Of a DNA stretch of 56,272 bases, positions 707-56,102 are shown piece after piece. Every line of letters starts with the position of its first letter. The stretch's first letter is position 1. The stretch is taken from contig NZ_JWID01000011.1 of the NCBI RefSeq assembly GCF_001466305.1, positions 1 through 56,272 of the forward strand, in the 5' to 3' direction. The DNA comes from Defluviitalea phaphyphila (GTDB taxonomy: Bacteria; Bacillota; Clostridia; Lachnospirales; Defluviitaleaceae). Both the position numbers and the translations under genes were made by a program. The notes under the pieces were generated by a model. It saw only the letters and a list, made by a program, of their open reading frames with translations, ran no database searches and was not told the origin of the DNA.

Positions 707-710
707 AAAA

Positions 711-798
711 CGGAGAAGGAGGGATTTGAACCCTCGCGCCGATTACTCGACCTATGCCCTTAGCAGGGGCACCTCTTCAGCCACTTGAGTACTTCTCC
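711..798 (-). tRNA. tRNA-Ser (anticodon GCT), CCA not encoded
   Basis: An 88-nt class II tRNA with a long variable arm. The acceptor stem GGAGAAG pairs with CTTCTCC. The anticodon loop CTGCTAA places GCT at 762-764, so it reads AGC/AGU serine codons. The T arm is GAGGG-TTCAAAT-CCCTC and the discriminator base is G. No CCA follows; the next bases are TTTT. The 88 bases are identical to the plus-strand copy at 56012-56099, which does encode CCA. A sigma-A promoter and a terminator flank it. Confidence 0.97.
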
Positions 799-813
799 AT
801 TACCGCTTGGTAT

Positions 814-5596: not shown

Positions 5597-5833
5597 TAAA
5601 AATAAACCCCCATCCTTTAAAAAAGGACGAGAGTTCCCCGCGTTGCCACCTATCTTGTTATATAAAAATATAACCCCTTTAAGTGAGATAAAGGTCACAA
5701 ACCTTCTGATTCATCATCAGCAGCTAAGAAAGTGGATCATCTTATATTCTATATCAGTTTACACCTACCACTGACTCTCTTTAATAGAAATATAAGACTA
5801 TTCTTTCTTCATCGCCATTTTATCCGTATAGTT
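5597..5833 (-). promoter_or_regulatory. T-box leader (serine) of serS
   Basis: The minus-strand leader has the T-box hallmarks in order: an AGAGAG box, a GGTAGGTG segment, a candidate specifier codon TCC (Ser, at 5734-5736) in GATGATCCACT, the conserved GGTGGCAACGCGG bulge (5636-5650) and a G-C-rich terminator hairpin (5605-5635) followed by TATTTTTA. The bulge TGGC would pair with a tRNA 3' end GCCA, matching the G discriminator of the tRNA-Ser genes in this window. Uncharged tRNA-Ser should stabilise the antiterminator and allow serS transcription. Confidence 0.93.
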
Positions 5834-5867: not shown

Positions 5868-5901
5868 TAAATAATGTATAAAACTTAAATATAATGGTTA
5901 T

Positions 5902-5986
5902 TATTTAAGTGTACCCAATGTAAGGTACATCGCTAAATCCCCCCTCAACCTGGAGCTTCTCCCCCCTGAAGCCCAGGTACTTTTTT
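5902..5986 (+). ncRNA. candidate small RNA with two UCCCCCCU segments
   Basis: This stretch is unusually GC-rich for the window and folds well on the plus strand. A first hairpin TGTACC / GGTACA (5910-5929) is followed by single-stranded TCCCCCCT (5938-5945). A strong hairpin then follows (5948-5978: ACCTGG-A-GCTTC / GAAGC-CCAGGT) whose loop is again TCCCCCCT (5960-5967), ending in TTTTTT (5981-5986). The last hairpin plus U run is an intrinsic terminator. C-rich unpaired loops of this kind occur in Gram-positive small RNAs such as RsaE/RoxS, which pair with Shine-Dalgarno sequences. No identity with a named RNA is claimed. A TATAAT (5890-5895) lies upstream but no good -35 is seen, so the 5' end is uncertain. 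It could instead be an attenuated leader of adhE. Confidence 0.55.
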
Positions 5987-6233: not shown

Positions 6234-8840
6234 ATGGCAGAAAAAAAAGTTGAAAAAACTCCACAAGTAGATGTTAAAACTATGGTGGATACTCTAGTTA
6301 AAAATGCAGAACAAGCACTTAGTGAATACATGAAGTTAGACCAAGATTCTATTGATAATATTGTTAAGACTATGGCTTTAGCTGGACTTGATAAACATAT
6401 GTACCTTGCAAAGCTTGCTGTTGATGAAACCAAAAGAGGTATTTATGAAGATAAAATTATTAAAAATATTTTTGCAACAGAATATATTTATCATAGCATT
6501 AAGTATGAAAAAACTGTTGGAATTATAAATGAAAATGATGAAGAAGATTATATGGAAATAGCAGAACCTGTTGGAATTATAGCAGGAGTAACTCCTGTAA
6601 CTAATCCTACTTCTACTACTATGTTTAAATCTATTATCTCTGCTAAAACAAGAAATCCTATTATTTTTGCTTTCCATCCATCTGCTCAAAAATGTTCTGC
6701 TGAAGCTGCAAGAATTCTTAGAGATGCAGCTATCGAAGCAGGTGTTCCTAAAAATTGTATTCAATGGATTGAAAGTCCCTCTATTGAAGCAACTCAATAT
6801 CTTATGAATCATCCTAATGTATCATTAGTTTTAGCAACTGGTGGTTCTGGTATGGTTAGGGCTGCTTATTCTACTGGTAAACCTGCTCTTGGAGTAGGAC
6901 CTGGTAATGTTCCATGTTTTATTGAAAAAACTGCAGATGTAAAAAGAGCTGCTACTGACCTCATTCTTTCTAAATCCTTTGATAATGGTATGATTTGTGC
7001 TTCTGAACAAGCTGCTATTATTGAAGCTCCTATATATAAAGAAGTAACTGATTTTATGAAGGCTCATAAATGTTACTTTGCAACTAAAGAAGAGGTTAAA
7101 AAATTAGAACCAGTAGTTATTAATTTAGAAAAAATGGCAGTTAATCCTAATATAGTAGGTATGCCTCCTTATAAAATTGCTGAACTAGCTGGTATTACTA
7201 TCCCAAAAGATACTAAAGTTCTTTGTTGTGAAATTGATGGAGTAGGAGAAAAATATCCTTTATCTAGGGAAAAACTATCCCCTGTTTTAGCAGTTGTTAA
7301 AGCTAAAAATGTAGAAGAAGGAATAAAAATGGCAGAAACTATGGTTGAACTTGGTGGTCTTGGTCATAGTTCTGTTATTCATTCTAATGATGATAAGGTT
7401 ATTGAAGAATTTTCTAATAGATTAAAAACAGGACGTATTATTGTAAATTCTCCTTCTACTCATGGAGCTATTGGAGATATTTATAATACTAATATGCCTT
7501 CCCTTACTCTTGGCTGTGGATCTTATGGTAAAAACTCCACTACTGCTAATGTAACAGCTGTAAATCTAATTAATAAGAAAAGGGTGGCGAAGAGAAGAGT
7601 GAATATGCAATGGTTTAAAGTTCCAGAAAAAATTTACTTTGAAGCAGGTTCTATTCAATATTTAAGCAAAATGCCTAATATTAGCCGTGCATTTATCGTA
7701 ACAGATCCTTTTATGGTTAAACTTGGATATGTGGATAAAGTATTATATCATTTAAGAAAAAGAATTGATTATGTACACTGTGAAATATTTAGTGAAGTTG
7801 AACCAGATCCATCTCTTGATACAATTAATAAAGGTGTTGACTTAATGAATAAGTTTCAACCTGATGTAATTATAGCTCTTGGTGGTGGTTCTGCTATGGA
7901 CGTTGCTAAGGGAATGTGGCTATTTTATGAACATCCAGAAGCTGATTTTACTGGTATGGCTCTTAAATTTATGGATATTAGAAAAAGAATTTATAAATTC
8001 CCTAAAATGGGTCAAAAAGCAAAAATGGTAGCAATACCTACTACTTCTGGTACTGGTTCTGAAGTTACTTCCTTTGCTGTTATTACAGATAAAACTAAAA
8101 ACATCAAATATCCTTTAGCTGATTATGAACTAACTCCTGATGTAGCAATAGTAGACCCTGAATTTGTTATGACTGTTCCAAAGTCTGTTACTGCTGATAC
8201 TGGACTTGATGTATTAACCCATGCAATTGAAGCTTATGTTTCTATATTAGCTTCTGATTATACTGATGCACTAGCTATGAAAGCAATTGAATTAGTTTTT
8301 GAATATCTACCAAAGGCTTATCACAATGGTAATGATGCCGTAGCTAGAGAAAAAATGCATAATGCTTCTTGTATTGCTGGAATGGCCTTTACAAACGCAT
8401 TCTTAGGTATTAATCACTCCTTAGCTCATAAACTTGGAGGAGAATTCCATATACCTCATGGAAGAGCTAATGCTATATTGCTTCCTTATGTTATAGAATA
8501 CAATGGTGAAACTAGTCCAACTAAGTTTGTTTCTTGGCCAAAATATGAAAAATTCATTGCTCCAGAAAAATATGCTCAAATTGCAAAACATCTAGGACTT
8601 CCAGCTTCAACTCCAGAAGAAGGAGTTAAATCTTTAGCTAATGCTGTTAGAAACTTAATGAAAGAACTTAATATCCCAGCAACTATTAAAGAATGTGGTG
8701 TAGAAGAAAACTCATTCCTTGAAAAGGTTGAATACTTAGCAGATAGAGCTTTTGAAGACCAATGTACAACTGCTAATCCAAGACTTCCTTTAGTAAGTGA
8801 ATTAGTAGACCTTTATAAAAAAGCATATTATGGAAAATAA
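6234..8840 (+). CDS. adhE: bifunctional acetaldehyde-CoA / alcohol dehydrogenase
   Basis: An 868-residue cytosolic fusion enzyme that reduces acetyl-CoA to acetaldehyde and then to ethanol, oxidising two NADH. Residues 1 to about 440 are the aldehyde dehydrogenase half, with the catalytic cysteine C255 in NGMICASEQ and a glycine-rich LATGGSGMV. A short linker (about 445-455) leads to the iron alcohol dehydrogenase half, with GGGSAMDVAKG, TTSGTGSEVT and the iron ligands in DVLTHAIEA, NHSLAHKLGG and PHGRANA. The length is typical of AdhE. AGGAGG precedes the ATG. It is single-cistron, with its own promoter, Rex-type operator and terminator, and runs against the local replication direction. Confident. 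Confidence 0.98.
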   Translation: MAEKKVEKTPQVDVKTMVDTLVKNAEQALSEYMKLDQDSIDNIVKTMALAGLDKHMYLAKLAVDETKRGIYEDKIIKNIFATEYIYHSIKYEKTVGIINENDEEDYMEIAEPVGIIAGVTPVTNPTSTTMFKSIISAKTRNPIIFAFHPSAQKCSAEAARILRDAAIEAGVPKNCIQWIESPSIEATQYLMNHPNVSLVLATGGSGMVRAAYSTGKPALGVGPGNVPCFIEKTADVKRAATDLILSKSFDNGMICASEQAAIIEAPIYKEVTDFMKAHKCYFATKEEVKKLEPVVINLEKMAVNPNIVGMPPYKIAELAGITIPKDTKVLCCEIDGVGEKYPLSREKLSPVLAVVKAKNVEEGIKMAETMVELGGLGHSSVIHSNDDKVIEEFSNRLKTGRIIVNSPSTHGAIGDIYNTNMPSLTLGCGSYGKNSTTANVTAVNLINKKRVAKRRVNMQWFKVPEKIYFEAGSIQYLSKMPNISRAFIVTDPFMVKLGYVDKVLYHLRKRIDYVHCEIFSEVEPDPSLDTINKGVDLMNKFQPDVIIALGGGSAMDVAKGMWLFYEHPEADFTGMALKFMDIRKRIYKFPKMGQKAKMVAIPTTSGTGSEVTSFAVITDKTKNIKYPLADYELTPDVAIVDPEFVMTVPKSVTADTGLDVLTHAIEAYVSILASDYTDALAMKAIELVFEYLPKAYHNGNDAVAREKMHNASCIAGMAFTNAFLGINHSLAHKLGGEFHIPHGRANAILLPYVIEYNGETSPTKFVSWPKYEKFIAPEKYAQIAKHLGLPASTPEEGVKSLANAVRNLMKELNIPATIKECGVEENSFLEKVEYLADRAFEDQCTTANPRLPLVSELVDLYKKAYYGK

Positions 8841-9179: not shown

Positions 9180-9986
9180 CTATAATATAAATTTTTCTAT
9201 TATTTCTTTTACTGCTCCATGATTGTTATCATTTTTTGTTATATAATCTGCTCTTTTTTTAATTTCAGGATGAGCATTAGCTACAGCTACTCCAAGATGC
9301 GCCTCTTCTATCATATATAAATCATTAAAACTATCGCCTATACATGCTACCTCTTCTTTTTTAAAACCTAATCTTTTCCTTAAATCTCTTAATGCCAATC
9401 CTTTATTAGTATTTATATTAGTAAATTCTAAATAAAAAGGTTTAGAAATAAACATATGTAACTTTTCTCTAACCCATGGTTCTAATTTTTCCTTTATTTT
9501 AATTAATTTTTTATTTTCACCTTGAAATAATATTTTTACAATATCTTCTTTAACCCATTCTGATAAATCTCCTACCTCTATATAATCCATTCCTGTTAGT
9601 CTTTTATATTCTTTAGTATATTCATTAGCTTTTTCTACAAATAAATAATCTCCTTGATAAGTTTGAGCATAAATATTTTCTTTTTTTGCAAACTCAAATA
9701 AATATTTTGCATACTCTTTTTTAATATTTTTTTGATTTATAATTTCTAAACTTTTTGTTTTAAAAGTAATTGCTCCATTATATGAAATAGCATATTCATC
9801 ATCTTTTTTTAAATTTAATTGTTCTAAATATGAATATAAGGCTACACTAGCTCTTCCTGAGCAAAGAACTATTTTTACACCTTTTTTTATAGCTTTTTGT
9901 ATAGCTTCTTGATTTTCCTTTGAAATAGTTAAATCATCACTTAAAAGAGTGTCATCCATATCAATTGCTAGCATTTTATACTGCAT
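9180..9986 (-). CDS. Cof-type HAD-IIB family phosphatase
   Basis: A 268-residue haloacid dehalogenase-fold hydrolase, likely acting on sugar phosphates or a cofactor such as pyridoxal phosphate or FMN. Motif I is DMDDTLL, with D9 as nucleophile and D11 as general acid. Motif II is the Ser in LCSGRA, and motif IV is IGDSFNDLYMIE near residue 216. The region between motifs II and III is the large type IIB cap. GGAGAGGAAG precedes the ATG. The members of this family overlap in substrate range, so no substrate is proposed. Confidence 0.92.
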   Translation of the reverse strand: MQYKMLAIDMDDTLLSDDLTISKENQEAIQKAIKKGVKIVLCSGRASVALYSYLEQLNLKKDDEYAISYNGAITFKTKSLEIINQKNIKKEYAKYLFEFAKKENIYAQTYQGDYLFVEKANEYTKEYKRLTGMDYIEVGDLSEWVKEDIVKILFQGENKKLIKIKEKLEPWVREKLHMFISKPFYLEFTNINTNKGLALRDLRKRLGFKKEEVACIGDSFNDLYMIEEAHLGVAVANAHPEIKKRADYITKNDNNHGAVKEIIEKFIL

Positions 9987-10079
9987 AGTATTCTTCCTCT
10001 CCTATATTTTATATGGTTAACTTTATAATATTATATCATAAAATTATCTAACTAATCTTATATATCTTTGAGTATTATA

Positions 10080-10108
10080 TTGACTTTTTTCATTTTTTGG
10101 TATATAGT
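10080..10108 (+). promoter_or_regulatory. putative promoter of the TPP riboswitch - thiT transcript
   Basis: TTGACT (10080-10085) and TATAGT (10103-10108) are 17 bases apart, about 39 bases before the riboswitch P1 stem. Confidence 0.6.
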
Positions 10109-10146
10109 TTTATATATTAAAGAATAATCTTTAAAATTAAATATAT

Positions 10147-10257
10147 GTCCGCTAGGGGAGCCTTTTGGCTGAGAGTGTGCTAATAAGCACTAACCCTTTG
10201 TACCTGATCCAGGTAATACTGGCGAAGGGAAGCGATTTTCGGTAACCTCCTGCGGAC
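10147..10257 (+). promoter_or_regulatory. TPP riboswitch (THI element)
   Basis: The conserved THI-box segments are all present: CTGAGA (10169-10174), ACCCTTTGTACCTGATCC, and ACTGGCGAAGGGAAGC. The terminal stem P1 pairs GTCCGC (10147-10152) with GCGGAC (10252-10257), extending to AGGGG with CTCCT. The thiT ribosome site (10264-10272) is only seven bases past P1 and no U-run terminator intervenes, so control is probably at translation initiation. Thiamine pyrophosphate binding normally represses genes of this class. Confidence 0.97.
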
Positions 10258-10278
10258 AAGAATAAAGGAGGATTTTTT

Positions 10279-10956
10279 ATGTTTTCAGAAGAAGTTCTAA
10301 ATGAATTTTTTAATTCTTTTTTAGGAAAATCTATAATGATTTTTATTGCTTTAATTTTTATTGCCCTATTTATTGGAAAGTTATATAAAAGCAAAAATTT
10401 TTCTTCTAGAGCTTTGACTTATTCAGGAATTGCTATTGCTCTAGCTACTATTTTATCTGAATTTACTCTATTTTCACTTCCTCAAGGTGGTTCTGTTACT
10501 CCTTTTTCCATGATGTTTATTGTTTTAATAGGATATTGGTTTGGTCCTTTAGAAGGAATACTTAGTGGAGTTACCTATGGTATATTACAACTTGCTTTAG
10601 GTGCATATGTAGTACATCCCATTCAAATATTACTTGATTATCCTTTTGCCTTTGGAGCATTAGGACTTTCTGGTTTCTTTAGAAAAGGTCCTTATTCTAT
10701 CATATACGGATACTCTGTAGGAGTTTTAGGTAGGTTTATATTTAGTTTCTTATCAGGATGGATTTTCTTTGGTTCCTATGCTTGGGAAGGATATAGTGCC
10801 ATAACTTATTCTTTTCTATATAATCTATCTTATATAGGAATTGAAATGATACTTACCCTTATATTATTTATGATTCCTTCTTTTAGAAAAGCCCTTTATC
10901 ATATTAGAAAAATAGTTAATATAAATGAAAATATAAATAAAAAAGCAGCTATGTAA
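10279..10956 (+). CDS. thiT: ECF-type thiamine transporter substrate-binding subunit ThiT
   Basis: A 225-residue integral membrane S-component of an energy-coupling factor importer that binds thiamine and works with a shared EcfA-A'-T module encoded elsewhere. About six membrane helices are visible. The segments WFGPLEGILSGVTYGILQL and YVVHPIQILLDYPFAFG carry the conserved thiamine-site residues of the ThiT/YuaJ family. AAAGGAGGA precedes the ATG. The TPP riboswitch directly upstream confirms the substrate and gives feedback control. It is single-cistron and ends at a bidirectional terminator. Confidence 0.96.
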   Translation: MFSEEVLNEFFNSFLGKSIMIFIALIFIALFIGKLYKSKNFSSRALTYSGIAIALATILSEFTLFSLPQGGSVTPFSMMFIVLIGYWFGPLEGILSGVTYGILQLALGAYVVHPIQILLDYPFAFGALGLSGFFRKGPYSIIYGYSVGVLGRFIFSFLSGWIFFGSYAWEGYSAITYSFLYNLSYIGIEMILTLILFMIPSFRKALYHIRKIVNINENINKKAAM

Positions 10957-10967
10957 GCTGCTTTTTT
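10939..10967. terminator. bidirectional terminator of thiT and the YkuS-like gene
   Basis: AAAAAAGCAGCT-ATGTA-AGCTGCTTTTTT overlaps the thiT stop codon and the end of the converging gene. Confidence 0.88.
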
Positions 10968-11256
10968 AAAATAGTGGAGAATATACTCTATTATTTATAA
11001 TTTGTTCTATTTCATCAATACTTTTATTTTTCCCATTTATAAATAATATTCCATTATGTTTATGTTTCGCTCTTTTTTGAACTGAGGAAGTTAATACCAC
11101 GCCTATACTATTATTTTCTTCCATCCAGTTTGGATGATCTATGTATATATAAGCATCTACTGGATAATTATATTCATCTTCATATACTACTTTATAGCCT
11201 CTTTCTTCTAATTTTTCTTTAATCCCTTCAAGTCCTCTTTGAATTCCTATTATCAT
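10966..11256 (-). CDS. YkuS-like (UPF0180) small protein
   Basis: A 96-residue cytosolic protein. It opens with a short strand and helix (IIGIQRGLEGIKEKLEERGYKV split by a turn) and continues as an alternating alpha/beta fold, like the UPF0180/YkuS family, although somewhat longer than the usual 80 or so residues. No catalytic motif is visible. Its ribosome site GGAGGTG lies inside the 3' arm of the terminator hairpin between it and the DUF4446 gene. It trails parA-parB-DUF4446 on the same strand. Function unknown; the family call is moderate. Confidence 0.6.
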   Translation of the reverse strand: MIIGIQRGLEGIKEKLEERGYKVVYEDEYNYPVDAYIYIDHPNWMEENNSIGVVLTSSVQKRAKHKHNGILFINGKNKSIDEIEQIINNRVYSPLF

Positions 11257-11300
11257 AAAAAAACACCTCCAGTTATATTATTTCCTGGAAGTGTGTTTTT
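11257..11300 (-). terminator. hairpin between DUF4446 and the YkuS-like gene, containing its Shine-Dalgarno
   Basis: The arms ACACTTCCAG and CTGGAGGTGT pair with one mismatch and are followed by TTTTTTT on the minus strand. The 3' arm contains GGAGGTG, which is also the ribosome binding site of the gene starting at 11256. The structure could both terminate and hide that site. Confidence 0.7.
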
Positions 11301-11301
11301 A

Positions 11302-11820
11302 TTATTTTTTCTCTTTATTTAATTTAGCTAATTTTATTGCTTGTTCTTCTTCTGCCGATAAGGTATAAGAACTTTTACCTTTTTCTATAGGTTTTGCATA
11401 AGTATATGAACCTTCTCTACCATGAATACCATTTATCACAACTCCATCATCATATCCATCTAAAAGGGCTATTGCATAACATAAATCTCCTCCCATATCA
11501 TCAAAAGCATTATATCTTACTATTCCTTCTTTTTGAATACAAGCTTTAACATTTTTCTTTATAGCTTCACATTCTTGTCTTATCTTTTTATTTTCATCTT
11601 CTACTTTTATAACTTTATCAATATAATCTATTAATATAGTTTCTAATGATTGCCCCTTTTGTCCTCTCATAAAACGATTATATTTTTTATTTAGTTTATT
11701 TAATTTAAAAGATAATATTATTAAAGCAATAAGAAAAATTAAGCAAATCATGCTAATACATATTAAAATTATATTATTATACATTGAAATCCACTTTGAG
11801 ATATTCATAAAGATATCCAT
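11302..11820 (-). CDS. DUF4446 family membrane protein
   Basis: A 172-residue protein with one N-terminal membrane helix (about residues 15-37, IILICISMICLIFLIALIIL) followed by a coiled coil (about 40-95) and a conserved C-terminal domain with IVRYNAFDDMGGDLCYAIALLD and GVVINGIHGREGSYTYAKPI, which is the DUF4446 signature. It is commonly found after parB in Clostridia, and here it overlaps the parB stop by one base. AGAGGTG precedes the ATG. The function is not established; the parAB linkage suggests an envelope or chromosome-partition role, which is inference. Confidence 0.9.
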   Translation of the reverse strand: MDIFMNISKWISMYNNIILICISMICLIFLIALIILSFKLNKLNKKYNRFMRGQKGQSLETILIDYIDKVIKVEDENKKIRQECEAIKKNVKACIQKEGIVRYNAFDDMGGDLCYAIALLDGYDDGVVINGIHGREGSYTYAKPIEKGKSSYTLSAEEEQAIKLAKLNKEKK

Positions 11821-12686
11821 TATTTCACCTCTAAATTCTTGTTTTCTATGGATTTAATTAAATAAAATATCCTTTCTAAATCACTATTAGAATAATATTC
11901 GATTTCTATTTTCCCTTTTTTCTTTCCCTTCGATATTTGTACTTTTGTTCCTAAAATATTTTTTATTTCTTCTTCTATTTCTTTATATATAGGAGAAATT
12001 TCTTTTTTCTTATTTTCCTTTTTAGTTTTTAATAGATTTTTTATTAATTTTTCTGTTTCTCTAACACTTAATTTATTCTTTAAAATTTTTTCTACTACTA
12101 ACAATTGAGTTTTTTTATCTTTTAAGGTTAATAAAGCCCTAGCATGTCCTTCACTTAATTCTTTATTTATCAATAATTCTTGAATTTTTTCATCTAATTG
12201 CAAAAGCCTTAAAGTATTTGCAATAGCTGATCTACTTTTACCAACTCTTTTTGATACTTCTTCTTGTGTTAAAGAAAAATTATTAATAAGGGCTTCAAAA
12301 GCCTTGGCTTCTTCTATTGGATTTAAATCCTGTCTTTGAATATTTTCTATTAACGAAACTTCTATAGCTTTATCTTGGGTATAATCATTAATTATTACTG
12401 GCACTTCTTTTAACCCTGCCATTCTAGCAGCTCTCCAACGTCTTTCTCCTGCTATTATTGTATAGTAATTATCTTGTTTTTTTACTATAATAGGTTGTAT
12501 AATTCCATGTTCTTTTATTGAATTTGATAACTCTTCCATTTTATTTTGATCAAAATTTTTTCTAGGTTGTTCTTTATTAGGTTCTATTTGATTAATTGGT
12601 ATCATAGAAATCTTTGCCGTATTAGTTTCTTGTTCTATATCTGAAATTAAAGCAGAAAGCCCTTTTCCTAATCCTCTTTTTGCCAT
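11820..12686 (-). CDS. parB: chromosome partitioning protein ParB (Spo0J)
   Basis: A 288-residue CTP-dependent DNA clamp that loads at parS and slides to form the partition complex. The N-terminal KRGLGKGLSALI is the segment that stimulates ParA. The CTP-binding motif GERRWRA is present. The helix-turn-helix reads GKSRSAIANTLRLLQL, followed by LSEGHARAL. Arg, Thr and Gly at the specificity positions are the ParB/parS set, in contrast to Gln, Lys and Arg in the Noc paralogue at 20108. It overlaps parA by one base, and two perfect parS sites lie just upstream of parA. Confident. Confidence 0.97.
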   Translation of the reverse strand: MAKRGLGKGLSALISDIEQETNTAKISMIPINQIEPNKEQPRKNFDQNKMEELSNSIKEHGIIQPIIVKKQDNYYTIIAGERRWRAARMAGLKEVPVIINDYTQDKAIEVSLIENIQRQDLNPIEEAKAFEALINNFSLTQEEVSKRVGKSRSAIANTLRLLQLDEKIQELLINKELSEGHARALLTLKDKKTQLLVVEKILKNKLSVRETEKLIKNLLKTKKENKKKEISPIYKEIEEEIKNILGTKVQISKGKKKGKIEIEYYSNSDLERIFYLIKSIENKNLEVK

Positions 12687-56011: not shown

Positions 56012-56102
56012 GGAGAAGTACTCAAGTGGCTGAAGAGGTGCCCCTGCTAAGGGCATAGGTCGAGTAATCGGCGCGAGGGTTCAAATCCCTCCTTCTCCGC
56101 CA
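56012..56102 (+). tRNA. tRNA-Ser (anticodon GCT), CCA encoded
   Basis: This is a second tRNA-Ser(GCT), identical over 88 bases to the minus-strand copy at 711-798 but followed by an encoded CCA (56100-56102). The anticodon is at 56046-56048. It has its own consensus promoter and no terminator before the rRNA promoter 25 bases downstream, so it may read through into the rRNA leader. Confidence 0.97.

What the first reader, a model, noticed from the sequence alone, without database searches (positions are those of the whole stretch)
5902..5986. Candidate trans-acting small RNA with twin UCCCCCCU segments upstream of adhE
Seen: a GC-rich island in an AT-rich gap with a 5' hairpin, a free UCCCCCCU, and a strong terminator hairpin carrying the same UCCCCCCU octamer in its loop, then six U. 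Six-C runs are very rare here. Known: RsaE/RoxS-type RNAs use C-rich loops to pair with Shine-Dalgarno sequences, and RoxS is tied to redox control. Inference: an RNA that blocks AGGAGG/GGGGGA-type ribosome sites, possibly linked to the Rex-controlled adhE next to it. It may also be a relative of a sporulation RNA such as CsfG; I cannot test that.
Basis: partly seen in the sequence, partly recalled or inferred. Interest (0 to 1): 0.72.

Follow-up and report, generated by a model that had tools for sequence, protein, structure and literature searches.

The report
Spore-compartment small RNA with C-rich loops
This is a gene for an RNA of about 80 letters with two runs of Cs, kept across many relatives that carry spore-formation genes; its promoter suggests that it is made in the developing spore, where it may stick to G-rich start signals of other messages.

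Summary
The window encodes a predicted ~80-nt plus-strand RNA (about 5907-5986): a GUACC/GGUAC hairpin, a free UCCCCCCU, and a terminator hairpin with a second UCCCCCCU in its loop. A covariance model finds it in 37 of 96 genomes of the same order (35 after dropping two doubtful hits); named relatives include Epulopiscium, Cellulosilyticum and Vallitalea. Both C-tracts persist (5-7 and 5-11 C) while the stems covary. All 34 members used match the forespore sigma-F promoter consensus upstream, at least 10 of 13 positions; sigG in the same genome has this type. None of 18 genomes without a good sigG match has it. No Rfam family matches. It is not CsfG by sequence but has CsfG's layout. The adhE/redox link is not supported. 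Most likely it is a forespore-made trans-acting RNA that pairs with G-rich ribosome sites; targets are unproven. The best candidate, pdaB (12 bp), is weakened because its G-run can pair with a cis C-tract. Transcription was not tested.

The parts
5876..5905 (+). forespore (sigma-F type) promoter: GTATA (5876-5880), 15-nt spacer, GGTTATTATT (5896-5905)
   Evidence: sigma-F consensus score 10 of 13 here; all 34 members score at least 10 vs 10% of shuffled regions; strict pattern in 31 of 34 vs a mean of 0.5 of 34 in 200 shuffles
5907..5986 (+). predicted sRNA, about 80 nt (5' end inferred, not mapped)
   Evidence: covariance-model match, 93 bits (the window was in the training set); homologues in other genomes
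5910..5929 (+). 5' hairpin UGUACC/GGUACA; in some relatives an extra domain sits inside it
   Evidence: fold; alignment (88.9% of cells paired in helix 1)
5938..5945 (+). first C-tract UCCCCCCU, unpaired, inside the strongly conserved AAUCCCCCCUCAACCUG
5948..5986 (+). intrinsic terminator hairpin (stem 5948-5959/5968-5978) with the second UCCCCCCU (5960-5967) as loop, then six U
   Evidence: helix 2 has 96.2% of cells paired and 9 of 11 pairs with two-sided changes (alignment fitted to the structure)

Best explanation
A stand-alone small RNA gene made in the forespore by sigma-F (possibly also sigma-G) RNA polymerase. The RNA keeps one C-tract single-stranded between two hairpins and shows a second in the terminator loop; both are free to pair with G-rich ribosome-binding sites (GAGGGGG, AGGGGGGA) of other mRNAs and block their translation in the forespore. 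Shown here: the conserved gene, structure, promoter match and co-occurrence with sigG. Inferred: that it is transcribed, when, and that it acts by pairing. It works like CsfG in layout but is not a CsfG member by sequence.
For: Model matches in 37 of 96 genomes of the order, with C-tracts kept while the stems change. 93.7% of pair cells standard and 78 two-sided changes vs 23.5 in shuffles (the alignment was fitted to the structure). Sigma-F consensus (as printed in PMC3416734, passage) matched at 10 or more of 13 positions in 34 of 34 members vs 10% of shuffled regions, with no sigma-A enrichment; the same promoter type stands before sigG in the same genome. RNA in 37 of 78 genomes with a good sigG match and 0 of 18 without, Fisher p 7e-5, not corrected for kinship. 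Neighbouring genes change while the RNA stays. Pairing with G-rich ribosome sites is energetically feasible.
Against: No transcript data. Targets are not shown: the G-run of the strongest predicted partner, pdaB, can pair with a cis C-rich stretch in the same leader, and the GGGGGG site was not seen at the pdaB starts printed for genomes of other families, where several starts were unclear. Forty-one of 78 genomes with sigG have no match, so it is not a general sporulation RNA, or the model misses them (37 candidates scored per genome, strict filters). The window's own -10 fits sigma-F less well than many others (10 of 13). The C-tracts could serve protein binding instead.
Confidence: 0.72

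Rival explanations
1. A diverged CsfG: the same ancestral forespore sRNA whose sequence changed beyond recognition in this order.
For: Same layout (5' part, C-rich unpaired tracts, terminator) and, in several cases, the same promoter type in 15 RF00516 loci that I read. RF00516 matches are common in the phylum (56 of 199 at E 1e-4, 5 over the family's cut-off) but none reaches E 1e-3 in 57 genomes of this order, as if one replaced the other.
Against: No shared core: the CsfG-strand core (CCCCATAAGCTCTTCCTCCGGTTTCTCCTCTCCC and variants) is absent here; RF00516 does not hit the locus; model R2 gives no hit at the CsfG position in 15 loci, and among 40 of the 56 RF00516-matching genomes only one has matches, two weak ones in which I saw no promoter.
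Confidence: 0.25
2. A RoxS/RsaE-type redox sRNA tied to adhE.
For: C-rich unpaired tracts near an adhE gene.
Against: Forespore-type promoter and no sigma-A enrichment, adhE nearest downstream in 4 of 34 only, adhE start pairs about as well as the median, no Rfam RsaE match.
Confidence: 0.04
3. The RNA mainly binds a protein or a G-rich sponge RNA through its C-tracts and does not silence mRNAs directly.
For: Both C-tracts persist in all 34 members, yet no target site shared across families was found (one gene looked at).
Against: C-rich regions of RoxS bind a ribosome site in experiments (PMC4409812, passages), so direct pairing is the known precedent.
Confidence: 0.2
4. The functional strand is the minus strand: a tiny ORF (GAGGGGGG-ATTTAGCG-ATG) with a strong ribosome site.
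For: GAGGGGGGATTTAGCGATG recurs opposite the RNA in several genomes.
Against: The ATG is lost in other members (for example L079), promoter and U-tract orient the plus strand, and the plus strand folds better relative to shuffles (z -5.66 vs -2.63).
Confidence: 0.03

Closest known systems
CsfG (B. subtilis; antisense of the Rfam ylbH leader RF00516)
   Same: Forespore sigma-F/sigma-G expression (there reported, here a promoter match), short RNA with several C-rich tracts and a terminator, reported as conserved in spore formers (PMC8216469, PMC3574147, PMC9147052, passages; loci)
   Different: No shared sequence core, no RF00516 match, different gene neighbours; the two were not found together in what was sampled
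RoxS/RsaE
   Same: C-rich unpaired tracts that can meet Shine-Dalgarno sequences (PMC4409812, passages)
   Different: Promoter type, neighbours and sequence; no Rfam match
FsrA
   Same: C-rich regions in a short RNA (PMC8216469, PMC4409812, passages)
   Different: Fur-controlled iron RNA; no FsrA sequence or model was compared here, apart from whatever Rfam holds

Membership tests
CsfG | Match to the RF00516 covariance model (antisense of csfG per PMC3574147) | tested here: not met
   No match at the locus at E 5 (six member loci), nor at that place in 57 genomes at E 1
CsfG | Forespore sigma-F/sigma-G promoter | tested here: met
   34 of 34 members at 10 or more of 13, by sequence only; use of the promoter is not testable here
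CsfG | Location between ylbG and ylbH (B. subtilis, PMC3574147) | tested here: not met
   serS is the divergent neighbour in 10 of 34, varied genes downstream (and the window, by eye from N-termini; ylbG/ylbH were not searched for as families)
CsfG | Several C-rich single-stranded tracts | tested here: met
   Two tracts; PMC4409812 gives three for CsfG
CsfG | Found in endospore formers | tested here: met
   0 of 18 genomes without and 37 of 78 with a good sigG match; sigG stands in for spore formation
RoxS/RsaE | Match to its Rfam model | tested here: not met
   No such match
RoxS/RsaE | Control by a redox/NO regulator (ResDE for RoxS) | not testable with these tools
   needs expression data; the promoter is of forespore type
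trans-acting antisense sRNA | Base pairing with an mRNA, proven by compensatory mutation | not testable with these tools
   only duplex predictions, and the best one has a cis explanation

The most novel reading that the evidence does not exclude
A previously uncatalogued forespore sRNA that took CsfG's place in one order of Clostridia and was kept when Epulopiscium turned spore formation into the making of live offspring (its promoter there matches the sigma-F consensus at all 13 defined positions), so that it serves compartment-specific translation control in a daughter cell rather than spore resistance.
Probability: 0.3. Interest if true: 0.75.

Novelty: new variant of a known kind. Interest (0 to 1): 0.55.

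Why it matters
Few forespore RNAs are known and what they do is largely open: for CsfG, papers of 2021 and 2022 say that no mRNA target is known (PMC8216469, PMC9147052, passages), although a 2025 paper says in passing that CsfG and a protein regulate sporulation-related mRNAs (PMC12456014, passage). A second forespore-type RNA of the same design but different sequence in another clade would suggest that C-rich RNAs are a recurrent part of the forespore programme. Its presence in Epulopiscium, which forms intracellular offspring by a process like endospore formation (PMC3416734, start of abstract), lets one ask whether it acts in building a daughter cell rather than in dormancy.

Tried and rejected
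Rejected: RoxS/redox/adhE; phage origin (no match in the 50,697 phage records at E 1); sigma-A promoter (the TATAAT at 5890-5895 is not conserved in the alignment, by eye, and sigma-A scores do not exceed shuffles); minus-strand mini-ORF; cis leader of the downstream gene (the neighbours vary).

Weakened by my own check: pdaB as target. Its ribosome site GAGGGGGGATTT is a 12-nt complement of the RNA in G000 (-23.7 kcal/mol vs a best of -20.7 among 41 window start regions), and GGGGGGATT stands before the pdaB start in 8 of 8 genomes of the window's family, but C-rich stretches upstream in the same leaders can pair with it. Of three leaders folded, the hairpin is strong in G000 and G003 (z -5.2, -3.5) and not significant in G002 (z 0.2). 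Other GAGGGGG sites shared by orthologues in at least two of three genera include a JAB-domain protein and an ORF that I take for apt from its sequence alone; not pursued.

Rows dropped: of the 37 genomes, two (L095, L096) were left out of the 34-member set because L095 shows no such promoter and L096 has a different 3' hairpin (by eye), and L004 because it is identical to L003 in the aligned stretch. The strict promoter pattern is in 15 of the 26 named contigs; the other 11 score 11 or 12 of 13 for sigma-F, and 9 of them match the sigma-G consensus fully. A model search of 391 genomes of the class hit the window genome alone, but only 9 candidates per genome were scored, so it says little. 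One search also used strict filters; absences may be misses. G552, an RF00516-matching genome, gave two weak hits without visible promoter. R2 hits in L125 (E 0.0018) and L134 (E 0.86) lie away from the CsfG position. My first promoter pattern was wrongly spelt and found almost nothing; it was corrected. In one search the shuffles keep single-base composition only; those keep dinucleotides.

Full report
The thing itself. On the plus strand between serS (divergent, with its T-box leader at 5620-5821) and adhE (6234-8840) lies a GC-rich island. It folds as a hairpin UGUACC/GGUACA, an open stretch UCGCUAAAUCCCCCCUCA, and a terminator hairpin CCUGG-A-GCUUC / GAAGC-CCAGG whose loop is UCCCCCCU, followed by six U. 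The fold energy is beyond all 200 shuffles (z -5.66); the minus strand is less unusual (z -2.63). Counts of C-runs alone are unremarkable.

It is conserved. A DNA search of 96 genomes (the window's own and relatives down to the same order) gave 24 loci with E below 0.02, the window's own included. After orientation they share GG-ACA, AAU with five or more C and UC, and a C-rich terminator loop, while terminator stems vary as CCUGG/CCAGG, CCUAGG/CCUAGG and CCUGCG/CGCAGG. A covariance model (R1) matched 37 of 96 genomes at E 0.01, one match each, in 14 of the 25 families sampled. I distrust two of the 37 (L095, L096), which leaves 35 genomes in 13 families. On 34 members aligned to the model, 93.7% of pair cells are standard pairs, with 78 two-sided changes against 23.5 in shuffles and at most 18 in slid controls; this alignment was fitted to the structure, so the numbers lean that way. 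In several members an extra domain lies between GUACC and GGUAC. Tract lengths: first 5 to 7 C, mostly 6; second 5 to 11 C.

Who has it. A pattern scan of named genome contigs returned 26 stretches, from Epulopiscium and Candidatus Epulonipiscium (including Ca. E. viviparus morphotype B), Cellulosilyticum, Vallitalea and other Vallitaleaceae, Niameybacter, Sporanaerobium and unnamed Clostridia. The pattern is strict, so divergent members are missed.

Its promoter. Upstream of each of the 34 members is a match to the B. subtilis sigma-F consensus GTATA / GGNAANAMTR (consensus as printed in PMC3416734, passage): 10 or more of 13 defined positions in 34 of 34, against 10% of shuffled regions reaching 10 for either forespore consensus; sigma-A matches are no better than in shuffles. 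A strict pattern is met in 31 of 34, 200 shuffles averaging 0.5 of 34 with a maximum of 3. The same arrangement (GTATA-N14-GGTAATCATT) precedes sigG in the window's genome. By eye, 3 of 8 SASP-family loci from three genomes have the sigma-G-like variant GTATA-N18-CATACT. Of 11 named contigs without the strict pattern, 9 match the sigma-G consensus fully. PMC3789822 (passages) reports that sigma-F and sigma-G consensus sequences are very similar in C. [quoted passage not shown] I cannot tell the two apart with certainty.

It follows sporulation genes. Eighteen of the 96 genomes have no good sigG match (best TIGR02850 E above 1e-40); none of them has the RNA. Of the other 78, 37 have it; Fisher p 7e-5, not corrected for kinship. 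The two of 8 genomes of the window's family without a match (G004, G007) are only 85% and 78% complete.

Neighbours. In 10 of 34 members, the window included, serS is the divergent neighbour; downstream lie adhE (4 of 34), HD-GYP-like, HAD-like and other genes (nearest ORFs assigned by eye from N-termini; only the window's serS and adhE were checked by Pfam). The RNA is therefore an independent gene.

Relation to CsfG. The CsfG paper (Marchais 2011) is not held; I read passages in other papers. They describe CsfG as a sigma-F/sigma-G forespore RNA with C-rich regions, without known target as of 2021-2022 (PMC8216469; PMC9147052), lying antisense to the former ylbH leader motif (PMC3574147); PMC12456014 (2025) mentions regulation of mRNAs by CsfG in passing. 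RF00516 matches at E 1e-4 occur in 56 of 199 genomes of the phylum, 5 above the family's cut-off, so most are below it. The 15 loci that I read carry, on the other strand, GTATA-type promoters in several cases and the core CCCCATAAGCTCTTCCTCCGGTTTCTCCTCTCCC or variants of it. In 57 genomes of the window's order the best RF00516 match is E 0.0036, and none of the listed matches lies at the sRNA locus. Conversely the R2 model finds only two weak matches, in 1 of 40 RF00516-matching genomes (40 of the 56), and none at the CsfG position in 15 loci. So the two look alike in design, differ in sequence, and were not found together. Whether they share an ancestor is open.

Targets. The free tract and the loop can pair with GAGGGGG-type ribosome sites. 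In three genomes of the window's family there are 109 such sites before an ATG, the antisense of the RNA itself included (19, 42 and 48, against 8, 37 and 22 for the reversed pattern); the excess may simply be ribosome-site usage. The best candidate is pdaB, a sporulation deacetylase (TIGR02764 is the best family, 157.9 bits, below the curated cut-off of 237.4; so are the best matches of 29 of 30 genomes): 12 perfect pairs, -23.7 kcal/mol, against a best of -20.7 and a median of -8.6 in 41 window start regions, adhE being -9.2. GGGGGGATT stands before the pdaB start in 8 of 8 genomes of the family and was not seen in the starts printed for other families, several of which were unclear. However, the pdaB leaders carry their own C-rich stretch that can pair with the same G-run (strong in G000 and G003, not significant in G002), which explains the conserved G-run without the sRNA. 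I therefore do not claim pdaB as target.

Epulopiscium. PMC3416734 (start of abstract in the listing; passages) says that Epulopiscium sp. type B forms intracellular offspring by a process like endospore formation and that sporulation sigma factors are conserved. The RNA is there with GTATA-N14-GGCAATACTA (L014, 13 of 13; the named Ca. E. viviparus contig L109, 13 of 13). That type B and Ca. E. viviparus morphotype B are the same organism is recalled. The passages seen do not mention this RNA.

Print. Searches for CsfG (40 of 104 papers listed), CsfG with clostridia, forespore small RNA in clostridia, Epulopiscium small RNA or forespore (8 of 40 listed), Cellulosilyticum sRNA (none) and C-rich sRNA in sporulating clostridia listed no title or abstract start that describes this RNA. 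Only open-licence papers are held, supplementary tables could not be opened, and the key CsfG paper was not read, so it may be in print elsewhere.

Noticed in passing
L307 (G000:C13), 9807-12206: The window genome's pdaB loses similarity to an intact relative after about 180 of 272 codons; a large serine recombinase ORF (Resolvase, Recombinase, zinc ribbon) on the same strand begins about 330 nt after it, which looks like a skin-type developmental intervening element in a sporulation gene. A related genome (G004) has pdaB matches at the ends of two contigs.
   Followed up: partly
L307 12196-12260 (-), L284 1288-1352: The pdaB ribosome site can be locked in a cis hairpin of a C-run and a G-run, a possible translational control of its own.
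   Followed up: partly
window 5620-5821 (-) and 10144-10247 (+): T-box leader of serS and a TPP riboswitch upstream of an ORF at 10279-10956 that looks like a membrane protein, by eye.
   Followed up: no
window 710-799 (-) and 56012-56102 (+): Two tRNA-Ser(GCT) genes with the same Rfam score near the two ends of the window.
   Followed up: no
G000_L206, G003_L209, G002_L210: A gene for a protein with a weak JAB-domain match has the identical ribosome site and start GAGGGGGATGAAATATG in three genera.
   Followed up: no
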